Source: Prevotellaceae bacterium
GTDB taxonomy: Bacteria > Bacteroidota > Bacteroidia > Bacteroidales > Paludibacteraceae
Assembly (NCBI GenBank): GCA_031261165.1
Contig: JAISJU010000024.1
Location: 1-36,138 of the forward strand
Length of the DNA: 36,138 nt
Direction: 5' to 3'
Numbering within the stretch: the stretch's first letter is position 1; each line of letters begins with the position of its first letter. Below are positions 2,411 through 3,933 of the stretch, piece after piece. The notes under the pieces are model-generated. The model searched no databases. It worked only from the letters and a program-made list of their open reading frames with translations, and was not told where the DNA came from. The translations under genes were made by a program, and so were the position numbers.

Positions 2411-3933
2411 AACTAATCCAAATCCTAAACCAATTTTTCACCATAAAAGGCGAACTCGGCACAAAGTTTTGCGTGTCCGCAGACAGCGACCGTAACAATA
2501 ATGTTACGCGGGTAGAATATATCACGGTGCAAAGCACAAAGAAACTCCCCGCCGATTGGCAAAATGAGAAAAAACGCCATAGCACAACGGATATTGCCAA
2601 AGTGCAACCGATAGAGCAAAAGTTAAGCGGTTTGGGTATGGCTTACGCGCCTGCCGCCACAGCCGTGCAGGTGCTTAACACTGTTGTCCCCGATAGTATG
2701 GGCGATGAAGTGAATAACGCCCTCGCAAACCTCAAAAAAGCGGTGGGCGATGTGAGCGGTTTCGTAGCAGAACGCTTACAGTTCAGCCGCGCCGAACTTG
2801 CCGACCGCCTCGCTGCCGAACAGGTAGATGCCGTTGCGCTTTCCATTTTCAACATTGAAGCGCGTGAGCAGGGATTTATCATTGGCGACCAGACAGGCGT
2901 AGGCAAAGGGCGCATTGCCGCCGCAATGATACGCTACGCAATCGTACAGGGACACACGCCCGTATTCATTACCGAAAAACCTAACCTTTTTACCGACTTT
3001 TACCGCGATTTAGCGGACATTGGTTGTCCGCAGTATCGACCGTTCATTATTAATACACGCGCCAGCAACACGGTCATCAAAGACAAAAACGGCGAAAAAC
3101 TGTTTGACGCGCCGGACGAAAAAACACAGCGTAAAATCATTGAAAGCGGTGAACTTACAAAAGATTATGATTTTGTACTCACTACCTACTCGCAGTTTTC
3201 TGACGAAGATTACACGCCTAAAAAGAATTTTCTCGTGCAAATGGCTGACGACAACATTATCGTAATGGACGAAGCACACAATGCCGCAGGTGTGGTTGAT
3301 GATGACGAAAGCGAGGGCGACAGTGAGGGCGATTTCAAACGCAAGCAAAAAGGCTCAAACCGTGCTACCTATTTCACAAAAACCATTGTGCCGCGTGTAA
3401 AAGGTGTGGTGTTCCTTTCGGCTACCTTTGCCAAACGTCCCGACAATATGCCGCTTTATGCCATTAAAACCTGCATAGGCGAAACTTCACTCAAACCGAA
3501 TGACCTCGCTACTGCCATTACAAAAGGCGGCGTGGCATTGCAGGAAGTTTTATCGGCAAATGTGGTAAAAGAGGGGCAAATGATGCGCCGTGAAAAAAGT
3601 AAAGACCAGATTATTACCAACTACATTTATCTGAACAAAGAGGGCAAAGCCCGTTTTGGCGTGAAAGACAGCGAAAAGCACGACCGCCAAACGCTCGACA
3701 GCATTACCGAACTGATGCGCGACATTATTGAATTTCAAAAGACTTATATAGAGCCGATTATCAAACAGCGAAACGAGTTGTTTCCGAATACAAAGATACG
3801 AATTTTGAAAGCAATTCACAACTGTGACCGAAATTCTGAACATCGTGATAAAGTTGTTTCCGAATACAAAGATACGAATCTTGAAAGCAATTCACAACTA
3901 CACGAAAAATCGTACAAGTGCCTGATAGGATAG
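2407..3933 (+). pseudogene. strawberry-notch-type SF2 helicase, C-terminally truncated; last ~50 codons are CRISPR-repeat DNA
   Basis: QTGVGKGRIAAAMIRYAI (Walker A), VMDEAHNAAG (DEAH), VVFLSATFAKRPDN (motif III); frame enters 48-bp repeats at 3776. Confidence 0.7.
3776..3899 (-). CRISPR. two-repeat type II-C-like CRISPR remnant
   Basis: Minus strand AGTTGTGAATTGCTTTCAAAATTCGTATCTTTGTATTCGGAAACAACT at 3776-3823 and again at 3852-3899 with 1 mismatch; 28-bp spacer GTGACCGAAATTCTGAACATCGTGATAA (plus strand) between them. Confidence 0.75.

What the first reader, a model, noticed from the sequence alone, without database searches (positions are those of the whole stretch)
3776..3899. Orphan two-repeat type II-C-like CRISPR remnant
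Two 48-bp copies (one mismatch) lie 76 bp apart with a 28-bp spacer. On the minus strand the unit GTTGTGAATTGCTTTCAAAATTCGTATCTTTGTATTCGGAAACAAC closely resembles the ~47-bp type II-C repeats of Bacteroidetes such as B. fragilis (from memory). No cas gene is present in the window. It looks like a relic or a minimal single-spacer crRNA unit left behind when a larger locus was lost.
Basis: partly seen in the sequence, partly recalled or inferred. Interest (0 to 1): 0.8.

Follow-up and report, generated by a model that had tools for sequence, protein, structure and literature searches.

The report
End fragment of resident CRISPR array
The two repeats are a genuine piece of an ordinary bacterial CRISPR (type II-C) immune memory whose Cas9, Cas1 and Cas2 genes sit elsewhere in the same genome; the odd join to a virus-type helicase gene is probably an assembly or truncation effect, so the find is mostly ordinary.

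Summary
In detail: 46-bp repeats at 3777-3822 and 3853-3898 (minus strand, one mismatch) flank a 30-bp spacer (3823-3852). It is a real Bacteroidetes type II-C CRISPR unit: Rfam CRISPR-DR49 aligns to both repeats (below its gathering score), near-identical repeats form ordinary arrays in 20 of 200 genomes of the family, and the 46/30 geometry, repeat-borne TTG-N20-TATCTTTG promoter and tracrRNA-pairing end all fit. It is not orphan: the same genome carries cas9 (5' end cut by a contig end), cas1 and cas2 on contig C157. No other copy of the repeat is assembled, and no array follows cas2. By terminal-repeat decay in relatives, the right side (3900+) is the old, trailer end and the left side the growing end. 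There, a strawberry-notch helicase gene with viral relatives stops exactly at the repeat edge, although homologues continue 630-2000 aa further. The 30 bp touching the repeat occupy the place of the next spacer. My best reading: this is the trailer end of the resident array, joined to a phage sequence through a spacer identical to its protospacer, most likely during assembly. A real truncation or recombination is not excluded. No target was found for the spacer. Low novelty.

The parts
3853..3898 (-). CRISPR repeat R1 (crRNA-sense 5' copy, trailer end; one mismatch to R2)
   Evidence: trailer assignment by terminal-repeat decay in relatives
3867..3874 (-). TATCTTTG, -7 promoter element inside R1; TTG 20 bp upstream (3895-3897)
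   Evidence: TAnnTTTG at the same place in 38 of 42 distinct relatives' repeats; shuffled repeats 4%
3823..3852 (-). spacer S1, 30 bp, TTTATCACGATGTTCAGAATTTCGGTCACA; no convincing target found
3777..3822 (-). CRISPR repeat R2; its 5' 26 nt (3797-3822) pairs with the conserved tracrRNA anti-repeat of relatives
   Evidence: duplex -24.7 kcal/mol against a shuffle mean of -8.3
3747..3776 (.). 30 bp in the position of the next (newer) spacer, here the last bases of the helicase reading frame; putative spacer = protospacer junction
   Evidence: inference; unique in the genome
2407..3776 (+). 5' part of a strawberry-notch (AAA_34) helicase gene, cut off exactly at the repeat edge
   Evidence: C-terminal half absent from the assembly
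561..911 (+). DnaJ-domain ORF, neighbour of the helicase also in the related element G084:C47 (L125)
3900..4355 (.). intergenic right flank (trailer side) before a chromosomal-type glycosyltransferase gene; contains a 23-bp palindrome, no tracrRNA

Best explanation
This is the trailer (oldest) end, repeat-spacer-repeat, of the resident type II-C CRISPR array of an uncultured Bacteroidales-type genome. The matching cas9-cas1-cas2 operon lies on another contig. As in other II-C systems, transcription would start inside R1 (TTG-N20-TATCTTTG), run through spacer S1 into R2, and R2's 5' half would pair with a tracrRNA and load Cas9 with one guide (inferred, not shown). Leftwards the array should continue with newer spacers. 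Instead the contig passes, at the repeat edge, into a virus-type helicase gene. I infer that the next spacer is a copy of that helicase's bases 3747-3776 and that the contig crossed from array to phage through this shared 30-mer, most likely during short-read assembly.
For: Repeat identity: Rfam CRISPR-DR49 on both copies, E 7e-4 and 2e-3; ordinary arrays with 1-3 mismatches in the 32-nt core in 20/200 family genomes. Resident machinery: Cas1 E 3e-29 and Cas9 fragments with RuvC-III and HNH on C157, operon cas9-cas1-cas2. Geometry 46/30 as in relatives, and polarity: crRNA-sense 5' repeat degenerate in 19/39 arrays, 3' repeat in 4/55, so R1 is the trailer end, consistent with literature that II-C arrays are read from repeat promoters toward the variable end (PMC8092290; PMC10309648). 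Promoter in 38/42 distinct repeats, and tracr pairing. Junction: helicase homology ends at the first base of R2 while 18 homologues, 16 of them in viral contigs, continue 630-2000 aa. At least 16 relatives' contigs stop within 80 bp of a terminal repeat, showing that assemblies break inside these arrays; short-read assembly of arrays is known to give chimeric and broken contigs (PMC6617893). In G084:C228 two repeats are followed by exactly the same 30 bp and then diverging phage-like sequence.
Against: No reads are available, so the chimera is not shown. No second contig holds the same 30 bp with a repeat or with the helicase's 3' half. The array is not next to cas2, where nearly all relatives with an array have it, so that it belongs to this operon is inferred from repeat type. 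The tracrRNA is not in the assembly. The G084 precedent is itself ambiguous: that genome shows no full Cas9.
Confidence: 0.6

Rival explanations
1. A genuine genomic remnant: the array really is reduced to R-S-R in the chromosome and its leader side was replaced by a fragment of a phage or other mobile element through deletion or recombination. It may still make one crRNA for the resident Cas9.
For: No other repeat copy in a 96.5% complete genome and no array behind cas2. Solo degenerate repeats do occur in relatives, e.g. L026.
Against: A random deletion would have to end at the exact repeat boundary inside the helicase gene. The contig is short and the genome is in 225 contigs, so absence of further repeats is weak evidence.
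Confidence: 0.3
2. A mini-array carried by the phage or mobile element that holds the helicase, used against competitors through the host's Cas9.
For: The array abuts a gene with relatives in viral contigs.
Against: The right flank is bacterial-chromosome type (glycosyltransferase, phosphoesterase, large secretion and gliding-type proteins). The helicase is cut at the repeat. No viral contig carries this exact repeat.
Confidence: 0.06
3. Not a CRISPR unit but a chance or coding duplication inside the helicase.
For: The ORF stays open through the repeats to 3933.
Against: Searches show it is the standard repeat; helicase homologues lack it.
Confidence: 0.02

Closest known systems
Bacteroidetes type II-C CRISPR arrays (Rfam RF01362 CRISPR-DR49)
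   Same: repeat sequence, 46-48 bp length, 29-30 bp spacers, repeat-borne promoter, tracr-pairing end
   Different: only two repeats; separated from cas2; leader side replaced by a virus-type gene
II-C locus of Bacteroidia bacterium PG1894_26 (L035)
   Same: closest Cas9 found (74% identity), cas1 79%, cas2 71%, similar repeat
   Different: 31-repeat array directly after cas2, tracrRNA upstream of cas9
Virus-borne mini-CRISPR arrays (e.g. PMC6858448)
   Same: one or few spacers with host-type repeats next to a virus-type gene
   Different: here one flank is bacterial-chromosome type and the viral-type gene is broken at the repeat

Membership tests
Type II-C CRISPR-Cas | repeat of the II-C Bacteroidetes type | tested here: met
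   (CRISPR-DR49 hits are below that family's gathering score)
Type II-C CRISPR-Cas | cas9, cas1, cas2 in the genome, no csn2 or cas4 beside them | tested here: met
   operon on C157; next ORF after cas2 has no Pfam hit; csn2/cas4 not searched genome-wide
Type II-C CRISPR-Cas | tracrRNA with matching anti-repeat | tested here: inconclusive
   conserved in relatives about 575 bp upstream of cas9 but absent from the assembly, which ends inside cas9
Type II-C CRISPR-Cas | array beside the cas operon | tested here: inconclusive
   not downstream of cas2; the upstream side is beyond the contig end
Type II-C CRISPR-Cas | promoter within each repeat | tested here: met
   (sequence motif only, no transcription data)
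Type II-C CRISPR-Cas | spacer matches a mobile element | tested here: inconclusive
   S1: no hit above chance. Putative S2 equals the adjoining helicase sequence by position only
Orphan CRISPR array (no cas in genome) | no cognate cas genes | tested here: not met
Virus-borne mini-CRISPR array | array inside a viral genome, viral genes on both sides | tested here: not met
   right flank bacterial-chromosome type; no viral contig with this exact repeat

The most novel reading that the evidence does not exclude
The junction is real DNA: a spacer recombined with its protospacer in an infecting phage (30 bp of homology, e.g. through a phage single-strand-annealing recombinase), so that phage sequence was captured at the growing end of the array and truncated it. 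The same would explain the repeat-plus-30-bp junctions in G084:C228.
Probability: 0.08. Interest if true: 0.7.

Novelty: new member of a known kind. Interest (0 to 1): 0.2.

Why it matters
Mostly as a caution: two-repeat 'orphan' arrays in metagenome-assembled genomes can be the tail of a normal array, and a spacer shared with a co-assembled phage can splice host and phage contigs. If the junction were real, it would show spacer-protospacer recombination reshaping CRISPR arrays. If the putative second spacer is real, it also names a candidate phage (one with a DnaJ plus strawberry-notch helicase cassette) that infects this host.

Tried and rejected
Spacer S1 against phage, plasmid and viral collections and its own genome: nothing above chance. 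Candidate anti-repeat at 4306-4321 (minus) rejected: it lacks the conserved AAGGATTATTCCGTTGTG core that follows the anti-repeat in relatives. Hypothesis that the window's right flank is the L043-type locus (array upstream of tracrRNA) rejected: no tracrRNA there. Helicase C-terminal half sought in the genome: absent. Synteny of the glycosyltransferase in relatives: too distant to show an empty site. Exact 30-mer and exact repeat in viral contigs: none. The microRNA matches are the 23-bp palindrome and are chance.

Full report
Observation. In 20 random sequences of the same length and first-order composition the best comparable repeat matches 27-32 of 48 positions, against 47 observed. On the minus strand the unit is GTTGTGAATTGCTTTCAAAATTCGTATCTTTGTATTCGGAAACAAC (46 bp) with a 30-bp spacer.

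Identity. Rfam's CRISPR-DR49 aligns end to end with both copies on the minus strand (34.6 and 32.6 bits, E 7e-4 and 2e-3, below the family's gathering score of 41). A search of 200 genomes of the same family finds near-copies of the 32-nt core in 20 genomes, almost all in regular arrays with 75-77 bp spacing. In 59 arrays from relatives the repeat is mostly 46-48 bp and the spacer 29-30 bp.

Not orphan. The window is the whole of contig C111 of a 225-contig, 96.5% complete genome. Contig C157 of that genome holds cas2, cas1 and a cas9 that runs off the contig at its 5' end; the Cas9 part shows HNH and RuvC-III domains. The closest Cas9 found is 74% identical (Bacteroidia bacterium PG1894_26, L035). 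In nearly all relatives with an array it lies directly after cas2 in opposite orientation, or in one case (L043) upstream of the tracrRNA. On C157 another gene follows cas2 about 14 bp away and there is no array. The two repeats are the only assembled copies with up to 3 mismatches. The tracrRNA, strongly conserved in relatives about 575 bp upstream of cas9, is not in the assembly, as expected if it lies beyond the end of C157.

Polarity and parts. In relatives the crRNA-sense first repeat is degenerate in 19 of 39 arrays and the last in 4 of 55. The window's right-hand copy (R1), which carries the mismatch, is therefore at the trailer side and the left is the growing side. This fits published II-C arrays, which are read from promoters in the repeats toward the variable end (PMC8092290; PMC10309648). 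The repeat has TTG-N20-TATCTTTG, the Bacteroidetes -33/-7 pattern; TAnnTTTG is present in 38 of 42 distinct relatives' repeats, against 4% of shuffled repeats. The first 26 nt of R2 pair with L035's tracrRNA at -24.7 kcal/mol, against a shuffle mean of -8.3 and minimum of -16.2. The unit thus has what one crRNA needs; expression is inferred, not shown.

Junction. The ORF at 2407 is the N-terminal part of a strawberry-notch helicase. Homology to P0001 (65% identity) runs to the first base of R2 and stops. Viral contigs hold relatives at up to 49% identity, and in 16 viral loci and 2 genome loci the frame continues 630-2000 aa past this point. The closest homologue, in G084:C47 (73%), sits beside a DnaJ-domain ORF as in the window, and near an endolysin gene. 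So a virus-type gene is cut exactly at the growing edge of a CRISPR repeat, and the 30 bp touching the repeat hold the place of the next spacer. A shared 30-mer between spacer and protospacer is the economical reason for such precision. Short-read assembly is the likeliest route, since assemblies break inside these arrays: at least 16 relatives' contigs end within 80 bp of a terminal repeat, and chimeric contigs at arrays are a known problem (PMC6617893). A similar case is G084:C228, where two repeat copies are followed by exactly the same 30 bp and then by diverged phage-like sequence. That case is ambiguous too, because G084 shows no full Cas9.

Target. Spacer S1 has no hit above chance in phage, plasmid or viral collections and no other match in its own genome.

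Verdict. A real but ordinary II-C CRISPR fragment belonging, by repeat type, to the resident system. The unusual join is probably an assembly effect. Whether it is real needs reads.

Noticed in passing
G084:C228 (L126) 136, 1019, 1805, 2936: Four single CRISPR repeats 790-1130 bp apart among phage-like and toxin-antitoxin-like genes, in a genome without a full Cas9. Two are followed by the same 30 bp and then diverged sequence. Chimera or spacer-protospacer recombination.
   Followed up: partly
window 3936-4050: A perfect 23-bp palindrome followed on the + strand by a TTTG/TATCTTTG promoter-like site and a strong hairpin with a T run (z -3.6): possible small RNA.
   Followed up: partly
window 22642-22710: DUF805 RNA motif (RF03081, 70.9 bits, above gathering score) overlapping the start of a 726-aa ORF.
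   Followed up: no
window 6326-6499: 42-bp tandem repeat, 4.1 copies, overlapping long ORFs on both strands.
   Followed up: no
window 33912-35191: Two transposase ORFs side by side (IS1595-type and IS4/5-type) near the right end of the contig.
   Followed up: no
L026 1500-1547 (G179:C37:7461): A solitary, slightly degenerate CRISPR repeat near gene ends in a genome that has a full Cas9 on the same contig.
   Followed up: no
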